Positions 40,766 through 58,949 of a stretch of DNA of 64,000 bases are shown one piece after another. Source of the stretch: Eubacteriales bacterium (GTDB lineage Bacteria; Bacillota; Clostridia; Lachnospirales; Lachnospiraceae); assembly GCA_030524545.1 (NCBI GenBank), contig JAUNGM010000017.1:31383-95382 (forward strand), read 5' to 3'. Below the pieces are notes generated by a model. That model ran no database searches. It was not told the DNA's origin and saw nothing but the letters and a program-made list of their open reading frames with translations. Each line of letters begins with the position of its first letter. Within the stretch, counting starts at the first letter, position 1. A program made the translations under genes and the position numbers.

Positions 40766-40805
40766 GAATTGTAATAAATGAGATTGTAACTATTTAAGAA
40801 CAAAT

Positions 40806-40845
40806 AAAAAGAGGATTACCGAAGAAGCCGGCAGTCCTCTTTTTA
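40806..40845 (+). terminator. Intrinsic terminator after the first wall hydrolase
   Basis: AAAAAGAGGA (40806-40815) pairs with TCCTCTTTTT (40835-40844), and the loop carries further partial pairing. Confidence 0.85.
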
Positions 40846-40902
40846 TTGTTGCGTTAGCGTTAATAAATGTTACAAAATATTAAACTTTTTGTTCGTTTAT
40901 GC

Positions 40903-40969
40903 TTGCATTCTTTGTAATCATGTGTTAATATGTAAAAGAAGTTAAGAAAGATATTACAAAAATATTACA
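40903..40969 (+). promoter_or_regulatory. Promoter and WalR-like box of the PcsB-like gene
   Basis: TTGCAT (40903-40908) and TAATAT (40926-40931) are 17 bp apart. ATTACA-N5-ATTACA at 40953-40969 is, on the minus strand, TGTAAT-N5-TGTAAT, a perfect match to the WalR consensus. Confidence 0.55.
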
Positions 40970-41000
40970 TAGTAAACACAAAGTTATGAGGGTGATAGAC

Positions 41001-42566: not shown

Positions 42567-42611
42567 TATCCCCCTGGGGGGCTTGCCGGGAAAAAGGGAC
42601 TTTTTTATAAT
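42567..42611 (+). promoter_or_regulatory. Promoter of the methyltransferase genes with C-run/G-run element
   Basis: TTGCCG (42583-42588) and TATAAT (42606-42611) are 17 bp apart. TATCCCCCTGGGGGGCTTG (42567-42585) runs straight into the -35 box and matches 45352-45370, before the importer, at 17 of 19 positions. Confidence 0.55.
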
Positions 42612-42645
42612 AAACAGGTATTTATGAAAAAACGAGGTTAAACCG

Positions 42646-43413
42646 ATGAATCTGAGAGACGAAATACATGATTACTGGACGAATCGTGCGTCCGGTTATT
42701 CTGAATATAATCAGCAGGAGATGGCAGATGCAAGGCGGTCTATGTGGAAAGGGAAGCTGTTGGAATTGCTTAAGGGACAGTTCCCGGGCAGGGAAGCGTC
42801 AGAAATAAGAATACTGGATGTAGGCACTGGCCCGGGCTTTTTTGCGATTTTGCTCGCGGAAGCAGGGTATCAGGTGACAGCCGTGGACTACACGGAAGAA
42901 ATGCTGAAGGAGGCCGGACAGAATGCAGGCAGTCTGGCAAAGCAAATTCGCTGGATGGTGGGAGATGCCCAGAATCTGGAACTGGAAGACGGGCAGTTCG
43001 ATGCAGTAGTGACCAGAAATGTCACCTGGAATCTGCCGGATCCTGCTAAAGCATATGGAGAATGGTACCGCGTTCTGAAAAATGACGGTGTTTTATTCAA
43101 TTTTGATGCGGACTGGTACGGACATTTATTTGATGAGAAAAAGAGAGCTGCTTATGAGGCTGACCGCAAAAGAGTAGAAGAGGAGCAGCTGGAGGACTAT
43201 TACGGCAGCACGGACAATGATAAGATGGAGGAAATTGCAAGGCAGGTTCCCTTGAGCCGCCTGAGACGTCCGCAGTGGGATATAGAGGCTATGCGAGAAG
43301 CCGGATTTCGGCATGTGGAATGTGATGAAGAGGTGTGGAGAGAGGTCTGGACTGAGGAAGAGATTGTGAACAATGCGTCCACACCGGTTTTTCTGCTGTC
43401 AGGAATAAAATAG
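42646..43413 (+). CDS. Class I SAM-dependent methyltransferase
   Basis: The 255-residue protein is a Rossmann-fold methyltransferase with the SAM motif ILDVGTGPGFF at 56-66, an acidic strand end (VTAVDYTEEM) and the segment RNVTWNLPDP near residue 125. The start HDYWTNRASGYSEY and the RNVTWNLPD segment recur in the C-terminal half of the next gene (RNLTWTLPD), so the two domains are related and may pair. The substrate is unknown. A promoter with a C-run/G-run element lies upstream, and an Opp/Nik-type importer follows two genes later. I infer that the enzyme modifies, or undoes modification of, a small molecule linked to that importer. GAGG lies before the ATG. Confidence 0.8.
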   Translation: MNLRDEIHDYWTNRASGYSEYNQQEMADARRSMWKGKLLELLKGQFPGREASEIRILDVGTGPGFFAILLAEAGYQVTAVDYTEEMLKEAGQNAGSLAKQIRWMVGDAQNLELEDGQFDAVVTRNVTWNLPDPAKAYGEWYRVLKNDGVLFNFDADWYGHLFDEKKRAAYEADRKRVEEEQLEDYYGSTDNDKMEEIARQVPLSRLRRPQWDIEAMREAGFRHVECDEEVWREVWTEEEIVNNASTPVFLLSGIK

Positions 43414-43458
43414 ACGAACGCCGATAATGATGGAAGGGAAGAAGGAAAGGGAGAGCCT

Positions 43459-45195
43459 ATGGAATCTATGGAGGTACGAAAAAAAGAGGATATATTTTGT
43501 CTGTGCGGACTGGAAGCTGCGCCCGGTGAGCGCGTCAGCGGATGGCTGAAGCTGGGAGACGGAGAATTTGAACTTCCTGCTACGATTCTTCACGGCGAAC
43601 GAAAGGGTAAGACCGTGTTGATCATGGCCGGCATTCATGCTGGAGAATATGTGGGAATACAGGCGGCGGTCGAGCTTGCCCGGAAGCTGAAGATTGAGAA
43701 AGTGACAGGAACCATCATTCTTGTAAAAGTGATCAACAGACCTGCCTTTGAAAACAGAAAGGGCAGTATGGGGCTGACAGACGGGAAAAACCTGAACAGA
43801 GTATTTCCGGGAAATCCCGACGGAACAGAGATGGAACGGCTGGCTTACGCTGTTGACCATGAAATTTTTCCGGCTGCAGATTACTGTATTGACCTGCACA
43901 GCGGTGATGATTATGAGGAGCTTACGCCGTATGTCTATTATGCCGGAAGGGCATCCGATGCTGTAGTAGCGGCCTCCCGCCAGATGGCGGAACAGGTGGA
44001 TGTTCCTTATATGGTAAAATCCAATGTAGTTTCCGGCGGTGCCTATAACCATGCAGCCTCCCGGGGCATTCCAAGCATCCTGATCGAACGGGGCGGAATG
44101 GGACAGTGGAGCAGTGAGGAATCCAGATCTACCAGGCGTGATGTGAGGAACATTTTGTGCCATCTTGGCATTTATCAGGGAATCAAGGATTACCGGACTT
44201 ATTATCCGCTGGATGTTGCGGATGTGCGTTATCAGGATGCTTCCCAGGGAGGATTATGGTATCCCCGTAAAAAAGCCGGAGATATGGTGCGCAAGGGAGA
44301 ACTCCTTGGAGAAGTCCGGGATTATGAAGGAAAGATAAAGGAGGTCAGCACTGCGGAATTTGATGGTGTGATTCTTTATCAGACAAAGACACTGCAGGTA
44401 CTGGAAGACGGCCCGATGATCACGTATGGCCGTATTGTAAAGGAATATGATGAGCGCAAAGACCGGATCGTAAAATACTGGGGAAAACGGAGCGAAAGTT
44501 TTCTGGAGCAGCGTCGGGCGGAGCTGCACAGCACGATGGCAGAGCGCTGGCTGAAGGAGATCCATAAGCAGACAGAAGCTTTGGAAACGGTATGCGGAGA
44601 AAAAGGACAACTGAAAATTCTCGATGTGGGCTGCGGCACAGGCTTTTTTACGGTACTGCTGGCAAAGCAGGGCTATGAGGTCATCGGAACGGACCTGACA
44701 CCGGAGATGGTGGAAAATTCCAGGAGACTGGCAGAGGAAGAACAGGCGGACTGCAGATTTCTGCAGATGGATGCGGAAGATCTGGAATTTGCGGATGAGA
44801 CCTTTGATGTTGTGATTTCCAGAAACCTGACATGGACGCTGCCGGATGTGGAACATGCTTATAAAGAGTGGATCCGCGTCCTGAAAAAGGGAGGAATCCT
44901 GCTGAATTTTGATGCCAATTACGGAATGAGTGATTTTGCGGATACGGCCGGTCTGCCGAAGACCCATGCACATTATACGGTAGGGGATGAGATGATGCGG
45001 GAGTGCGAAGAGATCAAGCGCCAGCTTCCGATCAGTTCCTACAGCCGTCCGGCATGGGATGTGGAGGCCTTAAGCAGAATGAAGCTTCAGGAGTTTTCCA
45101 TTGACCTTGGCATCAGCAAAAGGATTTATATCGAAAAAGACGAATTTTACAATCCGACACCAATGTTCCTGCTGTGTGCAAGAAAAACGGAGTAA
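43459..45195 (+). CDS. Fusion of AstE/AspA-type zinc deacylase and SAM methyltransferase
   Basis: This 578-residue protein joins two enzymes. Residues 1-325 are a peptidase M14-like succinylglutamate desuccinylase/aspartoacylase domain. Zinc ligands are His60 and Glu63 in AGIHAGE and His147 in DLHSGD, NLNRVFPG holds Arg114, and ILIERGG the catalytic Glu210, so the site looks intact. Residues 330-578 are a class I methyltransferase with ILDVGCGTGFF at 387-397 and RNLTWTLPD, related to the preceding gene. Members of the first family remove acyl groups from amino acids or peptides. The fusion suggests sequential deacylation and methylation of one substrate. GGGAG precedes the ATG, and a terminator separates the gene from the importer. 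Confidence 0.85.
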   Translation: MESMEVRKKEDIFCLCGLEAAPGERVSGWLKLGDGEFELPATILHGERKGKTVLIMAGIHAGEYVGIQAAVELARKLKIEKVTGTIILVKVINRPAFENRKGSMGLTDGKNLNRVFPGNPDGTEMERLAYAVDHEIFPAADYCIDLHSGDDYEELTPYVYYAGRASDAVVAASRQMAEQVDVPYMVKSNVVSGGAYNHAASRGIPSILIERGGMGQWSSEESRSTRRDVRNILCHLGIYQGIKDYRTYYPLDVADVRYQDASQGGLWYPRKKAGDMVRKGELLGEVRDYEGKIKEVSTAEFDGVILYQTKTLQVLEDGPMITYGRIVKEYDERKDRIVKYWGKRSESFLEQRRAELHSTMAERWLKEIHKQTEALETVCGEKGQLKILDVGCGTGFFTVLLAKQGYEVIGTDLTPEMVENSRRLAEEEQADCRFLQMDAEDLEFADETFDVVISRNLTWTLPDVEHAYKEWIRVLKKGGILLNFDANYGMSDFADTAGLPKTHAHYTVGDEMMRECEEIKRQLPISSYSRPAWDVEALSRMKLQEFSIDLGISKRIYIEKDEFYNPTPMFLLCARKTE

Positions 45196-45246
45196 TACGG
45201 TGCGGGATGATAGGAGAAAGCACAGAAGGAATGATGAAAAATGCGG

Positions 45247-45273
45247 GGGATGGGATACCATCCCTCTTTTTTT
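45247..45273 (+). terminator. Intrinsic terminator after the fusion gene
   Basis: GGGATGG (45247-45253) pairs with CCATCCC (45258-45264), loop GATA, followed by TC and seven T residues. Confidence 0.9.
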
Positions 45274-45316
45274 GCGAAAAGATGGAGTTCCGCTGAAGAA
45301 CTGTTGAGTAAGCGCA

Positions 45317-45396
45317 GAATGGATTTCTATGACAAAATAGAATGCGTTCATTATCCCCCTACGGGGCTTGTATCGGTGGGGTAAGACAGATATACT
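45317..45396 (+). promoter_or_regulatory. LysR-type box, C-run/G-run element and promoter of the first Opp operon
   Basis: TTGTAT (45368-45373) and TATACT (45391-45396) are 17 bp apart. Upstream, 45317-45344 matches 53707-53734, before the second importer, at 23 of 28 positions and holds a T-N11-A core (T45330, A45342) centred near -67. Between them TATCCCCCTACGGGGCTTG (45352-45370) matches the methyltransferase promoter. Confidence 0.6.
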
Positions 45397-45451
45397 GTAA
45401 GAGCTACTAAAGTTTAAGTGAATCTGCATAATGAAAAGGAGAAAAGAGAGC

Positions 45452-47041
45452 ATGAAATTGAGAAAAATCACCAGTCTGTTGTGCGCACTGGCCATGACAG
45501 CGACCCTTTTGACTTCAGGAGCATTCACAGTCAGTGCGGATGCATCGGACGGCAGTGTGGTAGTAACCATGCCGACAACCTCCGAACCGGAATCCGGCTT
45601 TGATCCCTCTTACGGATGGGGCGCAGGCGAGCATGTACATGAGCCTCTGATCCAGAGTACCCTGGTGCGTACGAATAAAGAGCTTGGAATTGAGAATGAC
45701 CTTGCAACAGAATACAGCTGCAGCGAGGACGGTCTTACCTGGACGGTGAAGATCCGTGATGATGTAAAATTCACGGATGGTGAGCCGCTGACAGCAGAAG
45801 ATGTTGCATTTACCTATAATACCTGCCGTGACAACAGCTCTGTGAATGACTTTACCATGCTGAAGGAAGCAGTGGCAGTAGATGATACTACCGTGGAGTT
45901 CCATATGAACGAAGCGTATTCCATCTGGCCGTATACCATGGCAATTGTGGGAATCGTTCCAGAACATGCTTATGATGAGAATTACGGACAGAATCCCATC
46001 GGCTCCGGCCGTTACATCATGAAGCAGTGGGACAAAGGCCAGCAGGTAATTTTTGAAGCTAATCCGGACTACTATGGAGAAACTCCGAAGATTCAGAAAC
46101 TGACGGTCCTCTTTATGGAAGAGGATGCAGCTCTTGCAGCAGCTATGTCCGGAACGGCAGATGTGGCTCATACGGCAGCATCCTACAGTGACCAGGAGAT
46201 CGAAGGATACAGCCTGCTGAATGTAGAAACCGTAGACAACCGCGGATTTAATCTTCCATGCACGGAACCGGAGGACAAAGACGGTGTGACACACGGCAAT
46301 TCCTTTACCGCAGATGTAAATGTAAGACGTGCCATTAACCTTGCCATTGACAGGGAAGAAATGATCGACCACGTATTAAACGGTTACGGAACCATTGCCT
46401 ACAGCGTCTGCGACAAGATGCCCTGGTACAATGAGGAAGCTGTAACAGAGTACGACCTGGACGCTGCCAGGAAGCTGATGGATGAAGCCGGATGGACAGA
46501 AGGCGAGGACGGCATCCGCGAGAAAGACGGAGAAAAAGCCGCATTTACCCTGATGTTCAGCAACGGTGATTCTGTCCGCCAGGCACTTGCAGAAGATACG
46601 GCGAATCAGTTAAAAGAACTGGGCGTGGAAGTGACGACCGAAGGCGTAGGCTGGGATACTGCCTATGACAGAGCACAGTCCGATGCACTTGTATGGGGCT
46701 GGGGCGCTCATTCGCCGATGGAGCTTTATAACATTTACCATACCATGAAGGATACAGGATCTGCGGAATATTCTCCCTATGCCAACGAAACCGTGGACAA
46801 ATATATGGACGAAGCTCTTCAGAGTTCTGACCTGGAAGCATCCTATGACCTCTGGAAAAAAGCACAGTGGGACGGAACCACCGGTATCACCCAGGAAGGG
46901 GACATTCCGTGGATCTGGCTGTGCAATATCGATCACCTGTACTTTGTACGTGACGGTCTGAAGGTAGCTGACCAGAAGCTGCATCCGCACGGACATGGCT
47001 GGTCTATTGTAAACAATATTGACGAATGGGAATGGGAGTAA
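45452..47041 (+). CDS. Opp/Nik-type ABC transporter substrate-binding protein
   Basis: The 529-residue protein belongs to family 5 solute-binding proteins, which bind oligopeptides, nickel complexes or related ligands. The signal peptide ends TVSADA, a signal peptidase I type site, and there is no lipobox cysteine. Family features include LATEYSCSEDGLTWTVKIRD near residue 85, GEPLTAEDVAFTYN near 110, PIGSGRYIMKQW near 180 and the VNVRRAINLAIDREEM segment near 290. AAAGGAG precedes the ATG at 45452. Two permeases and two ATPases follow, a complete importer. The adjacent methyltransferase and deacylase genes suggest a modified peptide-like or chelator-type ligand; this is an inference. Confidence 0.88.
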   Translation: MKLRKITSLLCALAMTATLLTSGAFTVSADASDGSVVVTMPTTSEPESGFDPSYGWGAGEHVHEPLIQSTLVRTNKELGIENDLATEYSCSEDGLTWTVKIRDDVKFTDGEPLTAEDVAFTYNTCRDNSSVNDFTMLKEAVAVDDTTVEFHMNEAYSIWPYTMAIVGIVPEHAYDENYGQNPIGSGRYIMKQWDKGQQVIFEANPDYYGETPKIQKLTVLFMEEDAALAAAMSGTADVAHTAASYSDQEIEGYSLLNVETVDNRGFNLPCTEPEDKDGVTHGNSFTADVNVRRAINLAIDREEMIDHVLNGYGTIAYSVCDKMPWYNEEAVTEYDLDAARKLMDEAGWTEGEDGIREKDGEKAAFTLMFSNGDSVRQALAEDTANQLKELGVEVTTEGVGWDTAYDRAQSDALVWGWGAHSPMELYNIYHTMKDTGSAEYSPYANETVDKYMDEALQSSDLEASYDLWKKAQWDGTTGITQEGDIPWIWLCNIDHLYFVRDGLKVADQKLHPHGHGWSIVNNIDEWEWE

Positions 47042-47050
47042 TCAGTCTTG

Positions 47051-48043
47051 ATGAAGAATCATCTCATATTTGCAGGAAAAAACCTGATAAGAATGATATT
47101 GCTTTTGTTTGCCGTGAGCGTTGTTACCTTCGCCCTGGTATCCGCCTCCCCCATTGACCCTCTGCAGGCCAATGTGGGGCAGGCGGCCCTGGGGTCCATG
47201 AGCGAGGCGCAGAAAGAAAAGCTGAGGTCTTACTGGGGCGTGGACAAGGATCCTGCGGAACGGTACATGAACTGGGCAAAGGATGCGGTAAGGGGGGATA
47301 TGGGAACCTCCCTTCTTTACCGTCAGCCTGTGACAAAGGTAATTGCTGTAAAATTAGCCAACTCTCTGTTTCTGATGGGGTTGGCTTGGATTATTTCCGG
47401 GATTCTGGGATTTCTCCTGGGAGTGATTGCCGGAGTATGGAAAGGAAGCTTTGCTGACAAAGTGATCAAAGGGTATTCCCTTGTGATCGCCAGTACGCCC
47501 GCCTTCTGGCTTGCGCTGCTCCTGCTGATCGTTTTTGGAGTCTGGCTGAAGGTGCTGCCCATCGGATTAAGTGTCCCGATCGGTGTGGAGGCCGGCGGTG
47601 TTACTTTTCTGGACAGGGTGCGTCATGCAATCCTTCCGGCAGTGACCTTAAGCATTACGGGAATTTCCAATATTACCCTGCATACCAGGGAAAAAATGCT
47701 CGACATTATGGAGAGTGATTATGTCCTTTTTGCCAGGGCAAGGGGTGAGAACACGCTCAGTATTATGAAACGCCATGGGCTCCGCAATGTTCTCCTGCCT
47801 GCAATGACCCTTCAGTTTGCTTCGATCAGTGAGATTATCGGCGGCTCTGTGCTGGTGGAGCAGGTGTTTTCTTATCCCGGTCTCGGGCAGGCTGCGGTTG
47901 CGGCAGGAACAGGCAGTGATGTGCCTCTTTTGATGGGGATTACGTTGATCACTGCGGCAATCGTTTTTCTCGGCAACTTTATAGCAAACCTTCTTTACGG
48001 CGTGGTTGATCCGCGTATCCGGAGAGGAGGGAAGAGAGAATGA
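47051..48043 (+). CDS. ABC transporter permease, OppB/NikB type
   Basis: The 330-residue protein has about six membrane helices, the N-terminal SASPIDPLQANVGQ segment seen in OppB/DppB/NikB permeases, and the inner-loop motif DYVLFARARGENTLSIMKRH that contacts the ATPase. The ATG at 47051 is preferred over the adjacent TTG at 47048. A GGGAG sits 12 bp upstream within the end of the binding-protein gene. The OppC-type gene overlaps its stop by 4 bp (ATGA). It forms one half of the membrane channel. Confidence 0.9.
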   Translation: MKNHLIFAGKNLIRMILLLFAVSVVTFALVSASPIDPLQANVGQAALGSMSEAQKEKLRSYWGVDKDPAERYMNWAKDAVRGDMGTSLLYRQPVTKVIAVKLANSLFLMGLAWIISGILGFLLGVIAGVWKGSFADKVIKGYSLVIASTPAFWLALLLLIVFGVWLKVLPIGLSVPIGVEAGGVTFLDRVRHAILPAVTLSITGISNITLHTREKMLDIMESDYVLFARARGENTLSIMKRHGLRNVLLPAMTLQFASISEIIGGSVLVEQVFSYPGLGQAAVAAGTGSDVPLLMGITLITAAIVFLGNFIANLLYGVVDPRIRRGGKRE

Positions 48044-48936
48044 AGAACGATCCGAAAAGAACAGGTCAGGGAAGAACAAATTCAGGAAAAAGAAACCGGC
48101 AGAGATCAGACGGACGGAAAATGAATCAACGGCAAAAAGCAAAGGTGCTTCTTGTCATCTCACTGCTTTTTCTTGCAGCAGTGGCGATTTCCGGAAGATT
48201 GTGCCATGAAGCGGCAATGGTGACGGATTTTTCCAGAAAGAATCTTTCTCCCTGCCTGCAGTACCCCTTTGGTACGGACTGGCTTGGAAGAAATATGTTT
48301 TACAGGACGCTGACAGGTTTATCCATGAGCATTCTGATCGGTGTCTGTGCGGCGGGTGTCAGCGCAGTGGTTGCTCTGATCATGGGAATCGCTGCAGCAA
48401 CCCTGGGCAAAAGGGCGGACTCGGTGATTACCTTTGTCATTGATATGGTGATGGGCATTCCGCATATGCTGCTTCTGATCCTGATCTCCTATGCAATGGG
48501 GAAAGGGCTGAAGGGTGTGATCACGGGAGTGGCCCTGACGCACTGGACTTCTCTGGCACGTCTGATCAGAGGAGAGGTGATGCAGTTAAAAGAGAGTGAG
48601 TATATCCAAATTGCAGCAAAACTGGGACAGAGCAAGGCAAAGATCGCGGTGAAGCATATGCTGCCTCATCTTCTTCCGCAGTTTCTGGTGGGACTTGTGC
48701 TTCTGTTTCCCCACGCGATCCTTCATGAATCCAGTATCACGTTCCTGGGATTCGGACTTTCCACAGAGCAGCCTGCCATCGGAGTGATCTTATCAGAAAG
48801 TATGAAATATCTGATCATGGGAAAATGGTGGCTGGCACTGTTTCCGGGAATGATGCTGGTGCTGACAGTGGTCTTGTTTGACCTGGGAGGCACGGCCCTT
48901 CGGAGAATCCTGGATCCGAACAGTGTACACGAATAG
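48040..48936 (+). CDS. ABC transporter permease, OppC/NikC type
   Basis: The 298-residue protein has an unusually basic N-terminal extension of about 35 residues (many Lys, Arg and Gln), then membrane helices and the hallmark PFGTDWLGRNMFYR of OppC/NikC permeases near residue 78. The loop SEYIQIAAKLGQSKAKIAVKH is the ATPase contact motif. It starts in the ATGA overlap with the preceding permease, which indicates translational coupling. With OppB it forms the channel of the importer. Confidence 0.9.
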   Translation: MKNDPKRTGQGRTNSGKRNRQRSDGRKMNQRQKAKVLLVISLLFLAAVAISGRLCHEAAMVTDFSRKNLSPCLQYPFGTDWLGRNMFYRTLTGLSMSILIGVCAAGVSAVVALIMGIAAATLGKRADSVITFVIDMVMGIPHMLLLILISYAMGKGLKGVITGVALTHWTSLARLIRGEVMQLKESEYIQIAAKLGQSKAKIAVKHMLPHLLPQFLVGLVLLFPHAILHESSITFLGFGLSTEQPAIGVILSESMKYLIMGKWWLALFPGMMLVLTVVLFDLGGTALRRILDPNSVHE

Positions 48937-48945
48937 GAGGAACTT

Positions 48946-49956
48946 ATGAGTTGTATCAATAAAGAACATATCCTGGAGATTGATGAACTGTCCGTTTCCT
49001 TCTTACAGTATGAAAACAGCAGGGGAAGCCGTCAGATCGAGCTTCCGGTCATTTCCAAACTGTCTGTTTCCGTGCATGAAGGGGAGATCGTGGCAATCGT
49101 GGGCTCCAGCGGTTCCGGCAAAAGCCTTCTTGCCCACGCGATCCTGGACATGCTTCCCTATAATGCAAGAACAGGCGGCAGGATGTATTTTGAAGGCCAG
49201 GAACTGACAGGAGAGCAGATACGGAAGCTTCGGGGAAATAAGATTGCCTTTGTCCCGCAGAGTACCACTTACCTGGATCCTTTGATGAAGGTGGGAGAAC
49301 AGGTGAGCGGAAGCAGAAAAGATCAGAAGAGGATAAAAAAACAGAAGGAGCTGTTCCGCAGATACGGGCTTGGAAGGGATGTGGATACAAAGTATCCCTT
49401 TGAGTGTTCCGGCGGAATGACCAGGCGTGTGCTGCTGACCTCCGCGCTGATGGGAAATCCGAGACTGATCATCGCGGATGAACCTACACCCGGAATGGAT
49501 CTGGCACTGGCGAAGAAATCCATGGAGGATTTCCGGGCTTTTGCAGACGAGGGAAATGGGGTGCTGCTGATTACCCATGACATTGAACTGGCATTGGAGG
49601 TGGCTGACCGGATCGCTGTATTTTATGCAGGGACTACCATAGAGGAAGCATTGGTTTCTGATTTTGCATCTGAAGAAACACTGCGCCATCCTTATACAAA
49701 GGCATTGTGGCGTGCGCTGCCTCAAAATGGCTTTCAGCCGTTTCCGGGCGTGCAGCCCTATGTGAAGGATATGCCAAAAGGGTGTCCCTTCGGGCCGAGG
49801 TGTCAGGAGTATTCTGAAGAATGTCAGGGTGAGATTCCCATGCAGCGGGTTGGCTGCGGGACTGTCCGGTGTGTGAAATACCACGGGGAGCCGCTTGCTG
49901 TTTCAAAATATGAAAATCACTCTAAGGCAAATCAAATGGCAGGAGGCGTATCATGA
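48946..49956 (+). CDS. ABC transporter ATPase, OppD/NikD type
   Basis: The 336-residue ATPase has Walker A GSSGSGKS near residue 55, a signature CSGGM in place of LSGGQ, and Walker B LIIADEPT. A C-terminal oligopeptide/nickel extension carries a cysteine cluster (GCPFGPRCQEYSEECQG and VGCGTVRC). In Opp/Dpp ATPases such clusters can hold an iron-sulfur centre. AGGAGG precedes the ATG. The last 4 bp overlap the second ATPase gene. It powers import together with that partner. Confidence 0.88.
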   Translation: MSCINKEHILEIDELSVSFLQYENSRGSRQIELPVISKLSVSVHEGEIVAIVGSSGSGKSLLAHAILDMLPYNARTGGRMYFEGQELTGEQIRKLRGNKIAFVPQSTTYLDPLMKVGEQVSGSRKDQKRIKKQKELFRRYGLGRDVDTKYPFECSGGMTRRVLLTSALMGNPRLIIADEPTPGMDLALAKKSMEDFRAFADEGNGVLLITHDIELALEVADRIAVFYAGTTIEEALVSDFASEETLRHPYTKALWRALPQNGFQPFPGVQPYVKDMPKGCPFGPRCQEYSEECQGEIPMQRVGCGTVRCVKYHGEPLAVSKYENHSKANQMAGGVS

Positions 49957-50543
49957 TTCTGGAAGGGAAAAATCTGACATTCTCCTATGAGGATAAAGAA
50001 ATTTTTCATAATGTAAATCTTCAGGTAGAAAGCCATGAGCGGGCGGCTGTCTTAGGCCCCAGCGGTTTTGGAAAGACAACCCTGTGCAAGGTGCTTGCAG
50101 GCTACCTTTCCCCAAAATCCGGGGAAGTCCTTCTGGATGGCAGGCCGCTTCCGAAAAAAGGGTACTGTCCTGTGCAGATGATCTGGCAGCATCCGGAACG
50201 CGCGGTAAATCCCAGATTGAAGATGCGGGATACTCTGGCAGACGGACAGCAGATTGAAGAGCGGATCATCCGGGGGCTTGGTATTGAGGCCGATTGGATG
50301 AACAGGTATCCCCAGGAGCTGTCCGGCGGGGAACTGCAGCGTTTTTGTATTGCCAGGGCGCTGGGAAAAGATACGAAATTCCTGATCGCAGACGAGATCA
50401 GCACCATGCTTGACCTGATCACCCAGAGCCAGATCTGGAATTTTCTGCTGAAGGAAGTACAGGAGCGGGAAATCGGTATGATCGTGGTATCCCACAGCGA
50501 ACCGCTTCTGGATAAAATTGCGACACGCAGGATACACTTTTAA
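49953..50543 (+). CDS. Short ABC transporter ATPase, OppF/NikE type
   Basis: The 196-residue protein is a minimal nucleotide-binding domain with Walker A GPSGFGKTT near residue 35, signature LSGGE and Walker B FLIADEIS. It is much shorter than typical OppF/NikE proteins (about 250-330) and lacks the C-terminal oligo-binding extension. The sequence is continuous and all ATPase motifs are intact, so it is more likely a compact partner than a broken gene. It overlaps the preceding ATPase by 4 bp and ends the first importer operon. Confidence 0.85.
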   Translation: MILEGKNLTFSYEDKEIFHNVNLQVESHERAAVLGPSGFGKTTLCKVLAGYLSPKSGEVLLDGRPLPKKGYCPVQMIWQHPERAVNPRLKMRDTLADGQQIEERIIRGLGIEADWMNRYPQELSGGELQRFCIARALGKDTKFLIADEISTMLDLITQSQIWNFLLKEVQEREIGMIVVSHSEPLLDKIATRRIHF

Positions 50544-50648
50544 AAATAATAAAAGTTAGATTTTTTCCCTCTGAGTGGCTTTTGCAAAATGGTCTTTTCG
50601 TGGTATGATAAGGATGAACAGGTTGGCCGGATCAGACAGGAGGGGCAT

Positions 50649-50885
50649 ATGGAGTATGTATATAAAGAAATACGCGCAAGCAGGAACTCACGTTCCCTGA
50701 TGGAATATGCACAGGAATTGGAGAAATGCTGCATTAATCACATGCAGTGCATGAATGAACTGAGAAATTTTGCGGCAAACTGCGGTTTGAATGAGACGGA
50801 ACACTGCCTTGAAAATGCATTAAGGGAAATGGAGAAAAGTGAGATGTGGCTGAGAGCTGCCGTTTCCAGTCTGAAGAATATCTAA
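50649..50885 (+). CDS. Small hypothetical protein
   Basis: A 78-residue helical protein begins MEYVYKEIRASRNS and contains three cysteines. ACAGGAGGGG lies 5 bp before the ATG, an excellent ribosome site. A possible promoter (TTGCAA at 50582 and TATGAT at 50604, 16 bp apart) precedes it. I recognise no family. It lies between the first importer and the AlbA_2 gene and is followed by a terminator, so it is probably a real single gene of unknown role. Confidence 0.6.
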   Translation: MEYVYKEIRASRNSRSLMEYAQELEKCCINHMQCMNELRNFAANCGLNETEHCLENALREMEKSEMWLRAAVSSLKNI

Positions 50886-52740: not shown

Positions 52741-53652
52741 ATGGTCGATTTAAAACAACTGCAGTATTTTGCGGCATGTGCCCGGACGGGCTCCATCAGT
52801 AAGGCGGCGGAGGTTCTGTATACGACACAGTCCAGTGTGAGCAAGGTCATTAAGGCGATGGAAACATCCATGAATGTAACGCTGTTTGAGAGGTATGCCA
52901 AGGGAATCCGCCTGACACGTGAGGGGGAGCATGTTTATAAGTATGCATGTCCTATTCTGGATCATCTGGAAAAGCTGCAGGCATTTGACAGGCAGGAGGA
53001 AAAAGAGGTGCTTTTGGTATCCTGTAACCCAAGCTCCTGGTTTGCGGATATGTTTGTGCAGTTTTATCAGAAGAATCAAAAGGAGAGCATTCATTATCAG
53101 GTTTATTCCGCAAGCAGCAGGGAGATTGTGGATCGGGTGCGGGAACGCAGCGATGATGTGGGATTTGTCTATGTGATGAAAAATCAATTGCCTGCATTTC
53201 AGTATTTTCTGGCAAGGAATTATCTGGAATTCACTGCCTTAAAAACGACGGATATTACCCTGTATCCAGGGGCGGGACATCCTTATTGGCAAGAGGAGGG
53301 CAGACAGATGACCCTGTCCGGCCTGAAACTGATCCAGCGCTTCCCGGATGAATTTTCACCGGACAATTACTGGGACATTTCAGACGAAAACGGCGATACC
53401 GCCGCTGATGCGGAGACAGTGATCACTACCAACAGCGATTATATAATGGAAAGGATTCTTCATGTAAGCGATCTGGTGAATATCAGCGGGGGCTATCTGG
53501 CAGAGGAACCCTGGAGAAAGGTAACCGGCGAGGTTCCTTTGTCAGGAAATGAAAACCAGGTTTTGTTCGGCTATGTAAAACGTCAGAATGAACCGCTCTC
53601 TGCATGGGCAGGGAAGTTTGTGGATTTTTTGAAGGAGAAGCTGGGAATATGA
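52741..53652 (+). CDS. LysR family transcriptional regulator
   Basis: The 303-residue protein has an N-terminal winged HTH (LQYFAACARTGSISKAAEVL, then TTQSSVSKVIKAME) and a LysR-type effector-binding domain that is rather divergent. GGGAG at 52726-52730 precedes the ATG. It lies directly upstream of the second importer operon and points the same way. Both importer promoters carry a T-N11-A dyad near -66, the usual place for LysR binding, so this protein is the likely regulator of both. A terminator hairpin follows its stop and overlaps the importer promoter. The effector is unknown. Confidence 0.88.
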   Translation: MVDLKQLQYFAACARTGSISKAAEVLYTTQSSVSKVIKAMETSMNVTLFERYAKGIRLTREGEHVYKYACPILDHLEKLQAFDRQEEKEVLLVSCNPSSWFADMFVQFYQKNQKESIHYQVYSASSREIVDRVRERSDDVGFVYVMKNQLPAFQYFLARNYLEFTALKTTDITLYPGAGHPYWQEEGRQMTLSGLKLIQRFPDEFSPDNYWDISDENGDTAADAETVITTNSDYIMERILHVSDLVNISGGYLAEEPWRKVTGEVPLSGNENQVLFGYVKRQNEPLSAWAGKFVDFLKEKLGI

Positions 53653-53865: not shown

Positions 53866-54810
53866 ATGGGAAAGTACATAATAAAACGATTATTACAGCT
53901 CATCCCGATACTGATCGGAATTACATTTCTATCTTTTGCCATGATGCGGCTGGCCGGCGGAGATGCGGTAACTTATATGTATGAAAATACCGGCACGGCG
54001 GTTTCACAGGAAATCATTGATGCGGCAAAAGCGGAATACGGGCTGGACAAGCCGTTTCTGGTTCAATATGCCAACTGGTTTGGAGGAATGCTGACAGGCG
54101 ATATGGGAGAAAGCTATGTTTCCCATAAAGATGTGTTTGAAACATTTGTTTCAAAGCTTCCTGCTACTTTGCTTCTGACACTGTCCTCTATTCTATTGAC
54201 TGTTGTCATTGCAATTCCCCTTGGAATCTTATCTGCTGTGAAGCATAACAAATGGGTGGATTATCTGATCCGTTTTCTGAGTTTTATGGGAAATTCCATG
54301 CCAAATTTTTTTGCGGCGCTTGTACTCATGTACTTCCTTTCCATAAGACTGAACTGGCTTCCGGTCATAACAACGGATAACACAGCAGTCAGCCTGATTC
54401 TTCCGACATTGACACTGGCGATTTCCATGGCTTCCAAATACACCAGGCAGGTAAGGGCTGCGGTTCTTGAGGAACTGAATAAGGACTATGTGGCCGGAGC
54501 AAGAGCCAGAGGTGTCCGTGGTAAGGTGATCATCTGGAAGAGCGTTATGAAGTCGTCTATGCTTACGATTATTACCCTGCTTGCATTATCTATCGGAAGC
54601 CTGCTCGGCGGTACGGCGATCGTAGAAAACATCTTTATGTGGGACGGCGTGGGAAAGATGGCAGTAGATGCCATTACCATGCGTGATTATCCTATCATTC
54701 AGGCCTATGTGGCATGGATGGCAATGATTTATGTAGTGGTGAATCTGGTAACGGATATCATCTACCATTATCTGGATCCCCGCGTACGCCTGGGAGGTAA
54801 TGGAGCATGA
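53866..54810 (+). CDS. ABC transporter permease, OppB/NikB type (second importer)
   Basis: The 314-residue protein has the typical start MGKYIIKRLLQLIPILIGIT, about six membrane helices and the conserved loop DYVAGARARGVRGKVIIWKS. The first extracytoplasmic region contains MRLAGGDAVTYMYENTG, as in OppB/DppB/NikB. A purine-rich GGGGAGGA lies upstream, though farther than usual. It overlaps the next permease by 4 bp. This operon has the order permease, permease, binding protein, ATPase, ATPase and needs no outside component. Confidence 0.9.
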   Translation: MGKYIIKRLLQLIPILIGITFLSFAMMRLAGGDAVTYMYENTGTAVSQEIIDAAKAEYGLDKPFLVQYANWFGGMLTGDMGESYVSHKDVFETFVSKLPATLLLTLSSILLTVVIAIPLGILSAVKHNKWVDYLIRFLSFMGNSMPNFFAALVLMYFLSIRLNWLPVITTDNTAVSLILPTLTLAISMASKYTRQVRAAVLEELNKDYVAGARARGVRGKVIIWKSVMKSSMLTIITLLALSIGSLLGGTAIVENIFMWDGVGKMAVDAITMRDYPIIQAYVAWMAMIYVVVNLVTDIIYHYLDPRVRLGGNGA

Positions 54811-55667
54811 GTGAAGAAAAAAAGATTACAGTCCGTGAACAGAAAATCAAAAAGAACCATATGAAAGCCAAACTGATATTTTTCCTTATACTCGCAGGAG
54901 CGCTTCTGCTGATTGCGGTCTTTGCCAAATATCTATGTCCTTATGATCCCTATGCACAGAACCTGATGGATGCACAGCTTCCGCCAAGCTCTGCACATCC
55001 TTTGGGTACGGACCGCTACGGACGTGATATGCTGTCCCGTGTCATTATTGGAAGTACCACGAGTATTTTTGCAACGCTTGTTCTGGTTGCGGTTATTACC
55101 GTAGTGGGAACTGCAATAGGGATCCTCTGCGGATGGTGCGGCGGAAAAATAGATACGGTTCTGATGCGTATTTCCGATCTGTTTCTGGCATTTCCGGGGC
55201 TGGTATTTGCTCTTGCGGTAGCCGGCGTCCTGGGAGGCGGCGTACAGAATGCGATCATTGCGTTGGGAGTGATAAGCTGGCCGAAGTTTGCGCGTTTGGC
55301 AAGAAGCCTGACTCTGACCGAGAAAGAAGCCCCTTATCTGATGGCTGCCAGGCTGTCAGGAAGCAGCATGCCGAAGCTTCTGTTGAAACATATTCTTCCG
55401 AATATTGCCGGGCCGATTCTGGTTACGTCCGTTCTGGATATCGGTACCATGATGATGGAGCTGGCCGGACTTTCCTTTCTGGGCCTTGGCGTAAAACCGC
55501 CGATGGCTGAGTGGGGAAGTATGATCAGCGACGGTCGGGTGATGCTTCAGACAGCACCGTGGATGGCTTTGGCACCCGGCGGAGCGATCTTTGTAACAGT
55601 TATGATCTTTAATCTGCTTGGTGATACGATCCGTGACTATATGGATCCGAAACAGAGGAATAAATAA
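54807..55667 (+). CDS. ABC transporter permease, OppC/NikC type (second importer)
   Basis: The 286-residue protein has a Lys-rich cytoplasmic N-terminus, one membrane helix, then HPLGTDRYGRDMLSRVIIGS near residue 65, the OppC/NikC hallmark. Further helices follow, with the ATPase contact loop APYLMAARLSGSSMPKLLLK. It starts in a 4-bp overlap with the preceding permease. A hairpin with GAGTCCGGCA arms follows it and may lower or separate expression from the binding protein gene. Confidence 0.9.
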   Translation: MSEEKKITVREQKIKKNHMKAKLIFFLILAGALLLIAVFAKYLCPYDPYAQNLMDAQLPPSSAHPLGTDRYGRDMLSRVIIGSTTSIFATLVLVAVITVVGTAIGILCGWCGGKIDTVLMRISDLFLAFPGLVFALAVAGVLGGGVQNAIIALGVISWPKFARLARSLTLTEKEAPYLMAARLSGSSMPKLLLKHILPNIAGPILVTSVLDIGTMMMELAGLSFLGLGVKPPMAEWGSMISDGRVMLQTAPWMALAPGGAIFVTVMIFNLLGDTIRDYMDPKQRNK

Positions 55668-55745
55668 TCAGGAAAGATATATTGAATACCAGAGTATGCA
55701 TAAGAATCCAATGACTCGGTGAAAATGCAGTTTATTAAGAATATG

Positions 55746-55796
55746 AGAGTCCGGCAGGCGTTTTTTCTGCAGGAAAATGTGATGCCGGACTCTTTA
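55746..55796 (+). terminator. Internal terminator-like hairpin before the binding protein gene
   Basis: GAGTCCGGCA (55746-55755) pairs perfectly with TGCCGGACTC (55783-55792), followed by TTTAT. The weak T-run suggests partial termination or mRNA processing. Confidence 0.65.
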
Positions 55797-55835
55797 TAGA
55801 TACATGATTATGATAAAGAAAGTTGAGGAATGAAC

Positions 55836-57389
55836 ATGAAGAAAAAAATTCTTACAGTCCTTTTGACATCAGCGCTGGTTGCTTCTATGGCCGCGGCACC
55901 TGTATTTGCCGATGGGGAAAAGGCATTCGTTTATGGAACTACCGGTTATGGCGTGGAAATGGGAGATGAAGGTTTGAATCCACATAATAACTATTCCGGA
56001 TGGAGTGCACTTCGTTACGGCGTTGGGGAAACACTGTTTAAGTATAATGACAATATGGAGATTGAACCGTGGCTGGCTACGGATTATGAGTTTGTAGATG
56101 ATAATACTGTTAAGATCACTCTCCGCGACGATGTTCAGTTTAGCAGCGGACGTACGATGGATGGAGAAGCTGTAAAAGAATGTCTGGACCATCTTCTTGC
56201 AGTGCACGACCGTGCTCCGAGCGACCTGAAGGTTGACCATATTGATGCTGACGGTATGACGATTACGATCTATACGACTGAACCATGCCCGGCAATCATC
56301 AATTATCTTGGTGATCCGTATGGAGCAATCATTGATATGGATTACGGTACGGACGGTGTGGAAGGTGATTCTGCCGGTACTGCTAATGTTGCAGGTACCG
56401 GCCCGTACATAGCTTCAAAGGTTACGGATACTCAGATTGATCTTGTAAAGAATGAGAATTACTGGGGCGGAGAAGTGAGCGTTGATAAAGTGGTTGTGAA
56501 GACCTTCAGTGATGCCAGTTCTCTGGCGGCTTCTCTGCAGACAGGTGATATTCAGGGGACATACGGGCTTTCCTATGACAGCTATGCATTGTTTGACGGA
56601 AATCCGGAGTATACCATTAATTCCTGTGCGACAAGCCGCTGCTTCTTTGGACAGTTTAACTATGATTCTGAGATCATGCAGGATGAGGCAGTGCGTAAGG
56701 CCATCTGTATGGGAATTGATAAAGAGGGATTTTGCACAGTTCTGATGCAAGGGAGGGGAATTCCGGCAAAAGCAGCATTCCCTGACAGCTTCAGTTATGG
56801 TAATGCAGCGGTAACTGCTCCGGATTATGATCCGGAAGGCGCTAAGGCCGTTCTGGAGGAAGCCGGATGGACAGATACAGACGGTGATGGATACGCAGAC
56901 AAAGACGGACAGAAGCTGACCGTACGCTGGCTGACTTATCCGGGACGTCTGGAACAGCCGAAGCTGGCAGAATATGCCCAGGCAACTCTGAAGGAAATCG
57001 GAATTGACGTAGATGTAAACTGCACACAGGATCATTTAAGCATCCTTGAGACTGGAGATTATGATGTATATGTAAGCTCTCTTACCACTGCGCCGACCGG
57101 CGATCCGGAATATTTCTTTACCACATGCGCGCTGGAGAGCTCAGCAAAGAACCGTTCCAATCATAAGATTGAGGAAGTGGAAACCCTGTACGAGCAGCTC
57201 CACCAGGAATTTGACGCTGCAAAAAGAGGTGAGCTTGCCATCCGGATGCAGCAGGCTATGCTGGATGAAAGCGCAATCTTTTTTGTATCTCATCTGAACA
57301 TGGGTATTGTTACAAGCTCTAATGTAACCGGTATGGCTGCACATCCGTGTGATTATTATGAAATTACTGCAGATCTGAATGTAGAATAA
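55836..57389 (+). CDS. Opp/Nik-type ABC transporter substrate-binding protein (second importer)
   Basis: The 517-residue family 5 binding protein has a signal peptide ending APVFA-DG (signal peptidase I) and no lipobox cysteine. Family features are LATDYEFVDDNTVKITLRDD near residue 72, the AGTGPYIASKV segment near 188 and DEAVRKAICMGIDKEGF near 287. A DTDGDGYADKDG loop near residue 347 looks like a calcium-binding loop, as in many family 5 proteins. GAGGA fits the ATG at 55836 better than the ATG at 55830, which directly abuts it. The ligand is unknown; a peptide or metal complex is typical for the family. Confidence 0.88.
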   Translation: MKKKILTVLLTSALVASMAAAPVFADGEKAFVYGTTGYGVEMGDEGLNPHNNYSGWSALRYGVGETLFKYNDNMEIEPWLATDYEFVDDNTVKITLRDDVQFSSGRTMDGEAVKECLDHLLAVHDRAPSDLKVDHIDADGMTITIYTTEPCPAIINYLGDPYGAIIDMDYGTDGVEGDSAGTANVAGTGPYIASKVTDTQIDLVKNENYWGGEVSVDKVVVKTFSDASSLAASLQTGDIQGTYGLSYDSYALFDGNPEYTINSCATSRCFFGQFNYDSEIMQDEAVRKAICMGIDKEGFCTVLMQGRGIPAKAAFPDSFSYGNAAVTAPDYDPEGAKAVLEEAGWTDTDGDGYADKDGQKLTVRWLTYPGRLEQPKLAEYAQATLKEIGIDVDVNCTQDHLSILETGDYDVYVSSLTTAPTGDPEYFFTTCALESSAKNRSNHKIEEVETLYEQLHQEFDAAKRGELAIRMQQAMLDESAIFFVSHLNMGIVTSSNVTGMAAHPCDYYEITADLNVE

Positions 57390-57406
57390 CGAGGAGACTG
57401 CTTATT

Positions 57407-58189
57407 ATGGAACCATTGCTGCGGGTAGAACATGTTACTATTTGTTATAACGGAAAGCCTGTTGTCCGGGATATCAGCTTTAACCTGAATCCGGGGGAAA
57501 TCCTGGGTGTGGTTGGTGAATCCGGCAGCGGTAAAAGCACCATCATTAAGGCCATCATGGGCCTCCTGGGCGGAGGAGGCATGGTAACGAGGGGCGACAT
57601 TTACTATAAAGGCCAGAATGTGGTGGATATGCCGCAAAAGGAGCAGCGCAGGCTTCTGGGACCGGAAATCGGGATGGTATTCCAGGACTGCAAAGCCGCC
57701 CTGTGTCCTATCCGCACCATTGGAGCCCAGATTTACGAGAGTCTGTTGGAACACGAAAGTATTACAAAAGAGAAAGCTTATGAGCGTGCCTGGGTTTTGA
57801 TGAAAAAAATAGGCCTGGATGATTATAAGCGGGTATTGGACAGCTATCCTTTTGAATTGTCCGGCGGTATGAACCAGCGTGTGGGAATCTGTGCCGCCAT
57901 GATGATGAAGCCGTCTCTGCTTCTGGCAGATGAACCGACCAGTGCTTTGGATGTGACCGTGCAGAAGCAGGTGCTGGAAGAGATGAAGCTGCTGCGTAAG
58001 GATTACGGAACGGCCATGATACTTGTCACCCATAATATTGGTGTTGTGGGGGCAATGGCTGATCAGGTTCTGGTGCTGCAGAATGGCAATATGATGGATT
58101 ACGGCCCCGCAGATCGTGTGCTGAACCACTCGGAAGATGCTTATACCCAAAATCTGATGAATTCTGTGCTGCATTTACGGAGGGATTGA
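57407..58189 (+). CDS. ABC transporter ATPase, OppD/NikD type (second importer)
   Basis: The 260-residue ATPase has Walker A GESGSGKST near residue 36, signature LSGGM and Walker B LLLADEPTSALD. It lacks the C-terminal oligopeptide extension of longer OppD proteins, so it resembles NikD-type subunits of about 250 residues. CGAGGAG precedes the ATG. The next ATPase starts 1 bp after its stop, and the two probably form the heterodimeric motor. Confidence 0.88.
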   Translation: MEPLLRVEHVTICYNGKPVVRDISFNLNPGEILGVVGESGSGKSTIIKAIMGLLGGGGMVTRGDIYYKGQNVVDMPQKEQRRLLGPEIGMVFQDCKAALCPIRTIGAQIYESLLEHESITKEKAYERAWVLMKKIGLDDYKRVLDSYPFELSGGMNQRVGICAAMMMKPSLLLADEPTSALDVTVQKQVLEEMKLLRKDYGTAMILVTHNIGVVGAMADQVLVLQNGNMMDYGPADRVLNHSEDAYTQNLMNSVLHLRRD

Positions 58190-58190
58190 T

Positions 58191-58949
58191 ATGTCTGATA
58201 CAATATTGCAAGTAGAACATTTAAAAAAAGTATTTATCACCGGAAAGAAAACATTTACCGCAGTAGATGACGTAAGCTTTACCGTAGAACGGGGCGAGTG
58301 CCTTGGAATCGTAGGCGAATCAGGTTCCGGAAAAAGTACCATTGCAAAAATGATCACCCGCCTTCTGGAGACTACGGAGGGCAAGGTAGTGCTGCTTGGA
58401 GAAGATATCACCCATGCCAGAGGCAAGGAATTGCGCAAGGCTTATCAGAAGATCCAAATGGTTTTCCAGATGCCTGTGGAATCCTTTGATCCTCGCTGTA
58501 CCCTTGGGGACGGCATTGGGGAAAGTCTGAGAAATATAGGTATGAGTAAAAAGAAAGCCAGAAAAAAGGTGGAAGAGCTGCTTATTACCTGTGGACTGAC
58601 ATCGGAATTTGCAGACCGCTATCCTCATGAGGTCAGCGGAGGACAGTGCCAGAGGGCCGCAATTGCCAGGGCTCTGGCTGTAGACCCGGCGCTGCTGATC
58701 TGCGACGAGGCTACCAGTGCTTTGGATGTAACTGTACAGAAGCAGATACTGGAGCTTTTGAAGGAATTAAAAGAGAAGAAGAAGCTTTCGTTTCTGCTGA
58801 TCTGTCATGATCTTGCCCTCGTCCAGGCCTTCTGTGATAAGGTGTTGGTACTGCATAATGGAAAGGCAGTAGAGACGGGGACAACGGATGAGATTATCAA
58901 CTGTCCGAAAACAGAGTATACGAAGAAGCTGATTGATGCAGTATTATAA
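58191..58949 (+). CDS. ABC transporter ATPase, OppF/NikE type (second importer)
   Basis: The 252-residue ATPase has Walker A GESGSGKST near residue 43, signature VSGGQ, Walker B LLICDEATSALD and the switch His in LICHDLAL. Its length fits NikE-type subunits without the oligo extension. GGAGGGA lies inside the end of the preceding gene. It ends the operon; the nitronate monooxygenase-like gene that follows has its own promoter. Confidence 0.88.
   Translation: MSDTILQVEHLKKVFITGKKTFTAVDDVSFTVERGECLGIVGESGSGKSTIAKMITRLLETTEGKVVLLGEDITHARGKELRKAYQKIQMVFQMPVESFDPRCTLGDGIGESLRNIGMSKKKARKKVEELLITCGLTSEFADRYPHEVSGGQCQRAAIARALAVDPALLICDEATSALDVTVQKQILELLKELKEKKKLSFLLICHDLALVQAFCDKVLVLHNGKAVETGTTDEIINCPKTEYTKKLIDAVL

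What the first reader, a model, noticed from the sequence alone, without database searches (positions are those of the whole stretch)
42567..50543. Candidate new system: paired methyltransferases, a deacylase-methyltransferase fusion and an Opp/Nik-type importer
A stand-alone SAM methyltransferase is followed by a 578-residue fusion of an AstE/AspA-type zinc deacylase and a second methyltransferase of the same kind (both have RN[VL]TW[NT]LPD). A complete family 5 importer comes next. The zinc site (His60, Glu63, His147, Glu210) and both SAM motifs look intact. I know of no described pathway with this fusion. It may process an imported, acylated, methylatable compound such as a peptide, betaine-like molecule or metallophore. 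The staphylopine importers (Cnt) also belong to the Opp/Nik type, which makes a metal-chelate ligand worth testing.
Basis: partly seen in the sequence, partly recalled or inferred. Interest (0 to 1): 0.78.

Follow-up and report, generated by a model that had tools for sequence, protein, structure and literature searches.

The report
Nickel-uptake island with methyltransferase-deacylase fusion
A bacterium carries two nickel-type importers together with two related methyltransferases, one fused to a zinc deacylase; relatives of these enzymes often sit beside importers and sometimes beside nickel or cobalt genes, so they probably process or make the small molecule that carries the metal.

Summary
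In detail: MT-A, the deacylase-MT-B fusion and a family 5 importer are intact and in order, and zinc and SAM residues are conserved. Nearest solved relatives of the binding proteins include nickel-binding YntA (importer 1) and NikA types (importer 2).

Relatives of the methyltransferases have an importer gene close by in 69 of 95 loci and, in some loci, nickel genes (larBCE, nikR, hypB) or cobalt signs (cbiK, cobalamin riboswitches). LarC occurs in 43 of 44 carrier genomes against 144 of 255 others; urease in 16 of 44 against 0 of 36. The window's genome has both.

Best reading: a nickel-chelate uptake module whose cytosolic methyltransferases and deacylase remodel the metal-carrying ligand. 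The metal is well supported; the reaction, and whether the enzymes release or make the ligand, is inferred. Nine paper searches showed no report of the link; most subscription journals are not held.

The parts
42646..43413 (+). MT-A, stand-alone class I SAM-dependent methyltransferase (255 aa)
   Evidence: Methyltransf_11 E 4e-25; outside the MT-B clade in the tree of 69 rows; AlphaFold2 model of mean pLDDT 97
43459..45195 (+). Fusion: AstE/AspA-type zinc deacylase (about residues 1-325) plus MT-B (residues 333-578)
   Evidence: PF24827 E 1e-27 and Methyltransf_11 E 2e-28; zinc ligands in 19 of 19 rows; full-length relatives in 12 other genomes
45431..47041 (+). Importer 1 binding protein, YntA-like (alternative start 45452)
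   Evidence: best PDB matches 3ry3 (E 8e-104) and 4ofl, nickel-binding YpYntA (E 1.7e-102), the latter over residues 50-535
47048..48043 (+). Importer 1 permease (TTG start)
   Evidence: BPD_transp_1 E 4e-41
48040..48936 (+). Importer 1 permease
   Evidence: BPD_transp_1 E 3e-23
48946..49956 (+). Importer 1 ATPase with oligo_HPY tail
   Evidence: ABC_tran E 4e-25, oligo_HPY E 2e-11
49953..50543 (+). Importer 1 second ATPase, short (196 aa)
   Evidence: ABC_tran E 4e-25
52741..53652 (+). LysR-family regulator ahead of importer 2
   Evidence: HTH_1 E 2e-20; LysR relatives recur beside the module, e.g. L035, L039, L041, L043, L079, L084
53866..54810 (+). Importer 2 permease, NikB-like
   Evidence: NCBIfam Opp2B 'nickel ABC transporter permease' 373.6 bits, over its cut-off of 350
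54807..55667 (+). Importer 2 permease, NikC-like
   Evidence: NCBIfam Opp2C 'nickel transporter permease' 311.6 bits, over its cut-off of 300
55830..57389 (+). Importer 2 binding protein, NikA-like
   Evidence: nearest solved relatives are named nickel-binding proteins: 3t66 (E 2e-50), SaNikA 4ofj (E 7e-38) and others
57407..58189 (+). Importer 2 ATPase
   Evidence: ABC ATPase by reading of the ORF, not scanned against families; homologues lie with the other importer 2 genes in many loci
58191..58949 (+). Importer 2 second ATPase
   Evidence: as above

Best explanation
A nickel-chelate uptake module. Two family 5 ABC importers, one YntABCDE-like and one NikABCDE-like, bring nickel into the cell bound to a small organic ligand. 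In the cytosol MT-A and MT-B, two related but distinct SAM-dependent methyltransferases, together with the fused zinc deacylase, change that ligand. Most likely they methylate donor groups (probably amines) and remove an acyl group, so that the ligand lets go of nickel and cannot rebind it. The freed nickel would serve urease and the nickel-pincer (Lar) system that this genome encodes. In relatives the same methyltransferase family also serves cobalt importers under cobalamin riboswitches. Shown: gene order, conservation, the tie to nickel and cobalt genes, the kind of importer. Inferred: that the ligand is the enzymes' substrate, that the reaction is N-methylation, and that it releases metal rather than builds a metallophore.
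Against: No substrate or reaction was tested. Cobalamin riboswitches stand before 5 of 24 importer operons of a more distant type (4 of the 5 operons include a methyltransferase; 0 of 26 of the close type), and cbiK lies directly upstream of a fusion gene in L046, so cobalt is the likely metal in places. 26 of 95 loci have no importer gene nearby, some of them on short contigs. 5 of 36 genomes with a close importer 2 binding protein lack the methyltransferase. G320 has the methyltransferase but no LarC, urease or NiFe hydrogenase. ABC proteins over 500 aa, some possibly exporters, lie within 5 kb in 11 of 95 loci, which would fit ligand export and so biosynthesis. SBP2 misses the NikA equivalog cut-offs (310.6 against 600; 199.4 against 393). 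The co-occurrence tests do not correct for phylogeny or genome size, and LarC is common among non-carriers too.
Confidence: 0.48

Rival explanations
1. Metallophore biosynthesis: MT-A, MT-B and the deacylase build a small methylated (or aminocarboxypropylated) nickel ligand from a common metabolite; it is exported, binds nickel outside and is taken back by the two importers.
For: Enzymes plus a chelate-type importer in one operon is how opine metallophore systems are laid out (recalled). ABC proteins over 500 aa lie within 5 kb in 11 of 95 loci; in L185, outside the 95, one has an ABC_membrane domain. The triple fusions (L035, L036, L041, L042) suggest consecutive steps on one molecule. The deacylase is near N-acetyl-diaminobutyrate deacetylases.
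Against: I saw no further biosynthetic enzyme or MFS exporter among neighbour clusters of four or more loci, though diverse exporters could escape that clustering. At least one of the 11 large ABC proteins (L041) looks like two fused importer ATPases.
Confidence: 0.28
2. Cofactor maturation: the methyltransferases act on an intracellular nickel or cobalt cofactor or its precursor (such as the nickel-pincer nucleotide or a corrinoid), and the importer linkage only reflects shared metal supply.
For: LarC occurs in 43 of 44 carrier genomes; lar genes or cbiK lie near the methyltransferase in L062, L081, L101, L046, L055 and L068.
Against: The marker genes differ (lar, nikR, hypB, cbiK) while importers are the common factor. 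G185 has the methyltransferase and urease but no LarC.
Confidence: 0.09
3. The importers take up an organic nutrient (peptide, betaine or acylated amino acid) that is then methylated and deacylated; metals are incidental.
For: Family 5 importers include peptide importers; the best NCBIfam scores of the importer 1 permeases are oligopeptide models, below cut-off.
Against: Binding-protein relatives, marker genes, riboswitches and genome co-occurrence point to nickel or cobalt.
Confidence: 0.07
4. The methyltransferases are passengers in metal-uptake islands, with an unrelated target.
For: 26 of 95 loci have no importer gene nearby.
Against: The link to importers is seen in Bacillota, Gilliamella, Parasutterella and Methanosarcina, and the enzymes are fused to each other and lie in importer operons.
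Confidence: 0.04

Closest known systems
NikABCDE nickel importers
   Same: Importer 2 has the five-gene set; its binding protein is nearest to solved nickel-binding proteins and its permeases pass the NCBIfam nickel-permease cut-offs.
   Different: Coupled to a methyltransferase pair and deacylase. The binding protein misses the NikA equivalog cut-offs. A LysR gene lies beside it.
YntABCDE nickel importer of Yersinia
   Same: Importer 1 binding protein aligns almost end to end with YpYntA, E 1.7e-102.
   Different: In Yersinia nickel transport genes flank the urease locus (title in the reference list of PMC2667541). Here urease is on another contig and the neighbours are the methyltransferase and fusion genes.
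Staphylopine-type Cnt systems
   Same: Family 5 importer for a metal-opine chelate with enzymes encoded alongside (recalled).
   Different: CntA scores far below cut-off; no nicotianamine-synthase-like or opine dehydrogenase match among the window proteins scanned.
DoeB / N-acetyl-L-2,4-diaminobutyrate deacetylases (AstE/AspA superfamily)
   Same: Same catalytic domain, zinc ligands kept; 6twl and 6twm among the five solved matches.
   Different: 119.7 bits against the DoeB cut-off of 402.7; fused to a methyltransferase.
Glycine/sarcosine N-methyltransferase (Methanohalophilus)
   Different: 55.6 bits against the family cut-off of 350; MT-A ties with C- and other N-methyltransferases as well.

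Membership tests
NikABCDE nickel importer (importer 2) | five genes: family 5 binding protein, two permeases, two ATPases | tested here: met
   ORFs 53866-58949; binding protein and permeases by family search, the two ATPases by reading and by homologues
NikABCDE nickel importer (importer 2) | permeases over NCBIfam nickel cut-offs | tested here: met
   373.6 against 350 and 311.6 against 300
NikABCDE nickel importer (importer 2) | binding protein over a NikA equivalog cut-off | tested here: not met
   310.6 against 600 (Opp5A_nikA) and 199.4 against 393 (nikA)
NikABCDE nickel importer (importer 2) | binds and imports nickel complexes | not testable with these tools
   needs binding and uptake assays
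YntABCDE (importer 1) | binding protein homologous to YntA over its length | tested here: met
   query residues 50-535 of 536 aligned to 4ofl, E 1.7e-102
YntABCDE (importer 1) | next to the urease locus | tested here: not met
   UreC of this genome lies on contig C59, the window on C6
YntABCDE (importer 1) | nickel transport | not testable with these tools
   needs uptake assays
Staphylopine Cnt system | CntA-type binding protein | tested here: not met
   121.8 and 141.6 bits against 800
Staphylopine Cnt system | nicotianamine-synthase-like and opine dehydrogenase genes | tested here: inconclusive
   no such match among the window proteins scanned, but not every window gene was scanned and the rest of the genome was not searched for them
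AstE/AspA deacylase superfamily | catalytic domain with zinc ligands and general base | tested here: met
   PF24827 97 bits against 25; H60, E63, H147 in 19 of 19 and E210 in 18 of 19 rows
DoeB deacetylase | NCBIfam equivalog cut-off | tested here: not met
   119.7 against 402.7
Class I SAM methyltransferases | Rossmann-type methyltransferase domain with SAM motif | tested here: met
Glycine/sarcosine N-methyltransferase | NCBIfam equivalog cut-off | tested here: not met
   MT-A 55.6, fusion 46.6 against 350

The most novel reading that the evidence does not exclude
MT-A and MT-B found a new enzyme family dedicated to metal-chelate traffic: SAM-dependent modification of the imported ligand is a general way to strip nickel or cobalt from its carrier (or, run as biosynthesis, gives a new SAM-derived nickelophore class), shared by Opp- and Fec-type importers in bacteria and archaea.
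Probability: 0.4. Interest if true: 0.85.

Novelty: new variant of a known kind. Interest (0 to 1): 0.7.

Why it matters
How nickel leaves the chelates that Nik-type importers bring in, and which natural ligands anaerobic gut bacteria use, are to my knowledge open questions (recalled, not searched exhaustively). A methyltransferase family that the Pfam and NCBIfam models name only in general terms would gain a testable role in nickel and cobalt supply for urease, lactate-racemase-type enzymes, hydrogenase maturation and B12. The fused and triple-fused forms give ready constructs for finding the substrate.

Tried and rejected
Staphylopine-like (Cnt) identity: set aside on the CntA scores. Peptide or betaine import: nothing specific supports it. 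A cobalamin or NiCo riboswitch in the window: no Rfam family reached its gathering score in 37000-64000. A methyltransferase in the G185 urease locus (L204): the 39% hit lacks the family motif on reading and was dropped. Structure search: Foldseek and VIA-align list only general small-molecule and protein methyltransferases, so no substrate can be named; nicotianamine synthases are not among the 50 rows shown, which excludes nothing. Papers: nine searches were answered (one search listed 15 of 47 papers) and one failed; no listing pointed to a paper on this methyltransferase family. I saw passages only of PMC2667541, PMC5816558 and PMC6224512; other papers only as listings. PMC5816558 lists a SAM-dependent methyltransferase mru_1613 and nikB1 mru_1617 as both up under lauric acid; whether mru_1613 belongs to this family was not tested.

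Weak points of counts and controls. The family set (L035-L074) is 40 regions from 39 of the 44 carriers; the window is a further carrier, and G004, G037, G105 and G215 were not fetched. The phylum set (L160-L199) is 40 regions chosen from the matches. Two loci were found to be duplicates between sets. The FecCD part of the 5 kb count uses distance between gene starts up to 6.5 kb. Carrier status of the 299 family genomes comes from a search with the fusion at E 1e-30, so weak carriers may be counted as lacking it; in the phylum draw it is a profile match at E 1e-35, which includes members without the strict motif. The two draws share some genomes (G000 and G261 among carriers). The urease and Nramp tests used all 44 carriers but only 36 of 255 non-carriers, the first in handle order. 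Dropped before the strict count: 22 of 119 loci without the RNxTW motif (among them the archaeal L102, L105, L107, Brevibacterium L111 with ureG, and L185) and duplicates L083 and L103, leaving 95. The class of 'ABC proteins over 500 aa' rests on length and ATPase similarity only. Riboswitches were sought in 53 of the 119 loci and in no control locus; three further loci with cobalamin riboswitches elsewhere (L084 downstream of a close-type importer, ahead of a GDT1 gene; L163; extra ones in L050, L172, L175) were not counted as operon leaders.
Full report
WHAT IS THERE. The window lies in a genome of 4.34 Mb. From 42646 to 50543, all on the + strand, are MT-A, the 578-residue fusion and a complete family 5 ABC importer. 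After a 98-aa ORF without Pfam match and an AlbA_2/RecG-type gene at 51172 come a LysR gene (52741) and a second importer (53866-58949).

WHAT THE IMPORTERS ARE. The binding protein of importer 1 aligns almost end to end with the nickel-binding protein YpYntA (4ofl, E 1.7e-102), just behind a 'putative solute-binding protein' (3ry3, E 8e-104). The binding protein of importer 2 has its nearest solved relatives in named nickel-binding proteins: 3t66, SaNikA, and the chains called nickel-binding periplasmic protein, which I recall as E. coli NikA. Its two permeases pass the NCBIfam cut-offs for nickel permeases; its own score for the NikA equivalogs is below cut-off, so I call it NikABCDE-like. 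Scores for CntA, the staphylopine protein, are far below cut-off.

THE ENZYMES. A search of 299 genomes of the family finds the full-length fusion in 12 others and the methyltransferase in 44 in all, this genome included; 6 more of the 50 matching genomes match the deacylase part only (list counted). In a tree of 69 methyltransferase segments MT-B forms a fully supported clade of 37 rows (100/100); the MT-A rows are the remainder, and three long-branched rows are unsure. In 28 MT-A and 35 MT-B rows the two share SAM and other core residues but differ at fixed positions, for example Y18, N22 and W157 in MT-A against F, R and Y in MT-B. They occur as neighbours, as MT-A-MT-B fusions (L049, L052), as deacylase-MT-B fusions and as one ORF MT-A-deacylase-MT-B (L035, L036, L041, L042). 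The deacylase also stands alone near them (L048, L050, L053, L054, L055, L084, L100). So the pair is the core and the deacylase an option, found in 20 of 95 unique loci, one of them with a broken copy; 34 of the 95 show two motif-bearing methyltransferases. The MT-A model is of high confidence (pLDDT 97) and resembles many methyltransferases, among them glycine/sarcosine N-methyltransferase, with no single best match.

LINK TO IMPORTERS. Of the 12 other genomes with an intact fusion, 9 have an Opp-type importer near it; of the misses, L044 lies near a contig end and G102 (L043) has a second, broken copy that does stand next to an importer (L047). Over the three sets of loci (40 from the family, 39 named, 40 from the phylum) Opp-type binding protein and permease genes occur in 31, 21 and 23; in the 41 control loci in none. 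In the stricter set (motif-bearing, duplicates removed) 69 of 95 loci have an Opp-type gene or FecCD nearby. The order FecB-FecCD-ATPase-methyltransferase is seen in L099 and L101. Close relatives of the importer 2 binding protein occur in 36 of 299 genomes; 31 of these carry the methyltransferase, against 13 of the other 263, and 27 of 39 places have it within 16 kb. Importer 1 recurs at high identity beside a fusion only in L040, where importer 2 follows it as in the window; weaker Ynt-like genes also lie in L090 and L184.

LINK TO NICKEL AND COBALT. Gilliamella wkB108 (L081) has larA-like, an MFS gene, larC, larE and larB directly ahead of the methyltransferase and importer. L062 has larB-larC-larE next to MT-B and an importer next to MT-A. 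Merdimmobilis (L101) has an Fec-type importer, MT and larE, with a larC-larE ORF further on. Virgibacillus (L090) and Parasutterella (L099) have nikR next to the methyltransferase. L059, L079 and L080 have hypB downstream of the pair, the first two confirmed by NCBIfam. Cobalt appears too: cbiK lies directly upstream of the fusion in L046, lies between a cobalamin riboswitch and two methyltransferases in L068, and is joined to hemC in one ORF of L055. Cobalamin riboswitches precede 5 importer operons, 4 of which include a methyltransferase, all of the more distant importer type (5 of 24 scanned; 0 of 26 of the close type that the window has). L050 has a NiCo riboswitch ahead of a cation-efflux gene next to MT-B. 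None of the marker exemplars finds a match in the 41 control loci. Most MT loci show no such marker within reach: for example lar or nikR in 5 of 119.

GENOME CO-OCCURRENCE. LarC is in 43 of 44 carriers against 144 of 255 non-carriers in the family draw, and in 34 of 35 against 189 of 363 in the phylum draw. Urease is in 16 of 44 against 0 of 36; Nramp, a control, in 11 of 44 against 4 of 36. The one family carrier without LarC (G185) has urease; the one phylum carrier without LarC (G320) has neither urease nor NiFe hydrogenase. Ten of 13 fusion genomes have urease against 6 of 31 other carriers; shared ancestry may explain this. These tests are not corrected for phylogeny or genome size. The window's genome has LarC and urease and no NiFe hydrogenase match.

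HOW IT MOST LIKELY WORKS. Shown: the gene sets, their conservation, and the tie to nickel and cobalt genes. Inferred: nickel enters as a chelate; MT-A, MT-B and the deacylase act on the ligand in the cytosol, weakening its hold on the metal. I prefer processing to biosynthesis because among clusters of four or more loci in 1112 unlabelled neighbour ORFs I saw no ligand-biosynthesis enzyme or MFS exporter; what recurred was FecB, FecCD, response regulators, Lar proteins, ABC-3 permeases, a Gate-domain protein, DUF4198 and a few others, judged by one representative each. Large ABC proteins near 11 of 95 loci keep biosynthesis open. Nickel rather than cobalt for this window rests on the close importer type, the YntA likeness, the absence of a riboswitch and the nickel genes of the genome; the genome has a separate distant-type importer next to cbiK (L201).

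KNOWN OR NEW. The importers are of a known kind. Their tie to this methyltransferase family I did not find in print in the searches; the library lacks most subscription journals. The 2009 survey of nickel and cobalt use (PMC2667541), of which I saw 12 of 34 matching passages and six more, shows no mention of it in those passages.

Noticed in passing
window 51172-52689: AlbA_2/RecG C-terminal-type gene between importer 1 and the LysR gene; it has no relative among the compared neighbour ORFs and may be an insertion into the island.
   Followed up: partly
window 50589-50885: 98-aa ORF with no Pfam match and no relative in the compared neighbourhoods.
   Followed up: partly
L047 7757-10042: A second copy of the MT-A, deacylase and MT-B genes in genome G102 is broken into several frames, yet stands near an importer 2 type, while the intact copy (L043) has no importer nearby.
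   Followed up: no
L104 10795-11904: A 370-aa ORF next to MT-B matches the RcnR-like exemplar (1e-37) and, by reading, has a SAM-type motif near its start: perhaps a methyltransferase joined to a metal-sensing repressor domain.
   Followed up: no
L201 6624-7859; also L050 6-1184, L072 1094-2341, L095 12418-13644: About 400-aa secreted protein family near distant-type importers or methyltransferases; the one member scanned has no Pfam or NCBIfam match; a possible second unknown partner.
   Followed up: partly
L102 5096, L105 10894, L163 10178, L186 5975, L187 5625: A Gate-domain membrane protein recurs beside methyltransferase relatives in archaea and Bacillota, in L163 and L186 together with a DUF4198 protein.
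   Followed up: partly
L201 5693-13246: The window's genome has another Nik-type importer (distant type) without methyltransferase, next to cobalt chelatase cbiK.
   Followed up: partly
L204 5528-16266: In G185 a urease cluster lies next to a distant-type Nik importer without a motif-bearing methyltransferase.
   Followed up: partly
window 39272-42428: Two ORFs just upstream, by reading one with repeats and one with a coiled coil and an NlpC/P60-like end; not scanned against families.
   Followed up: no
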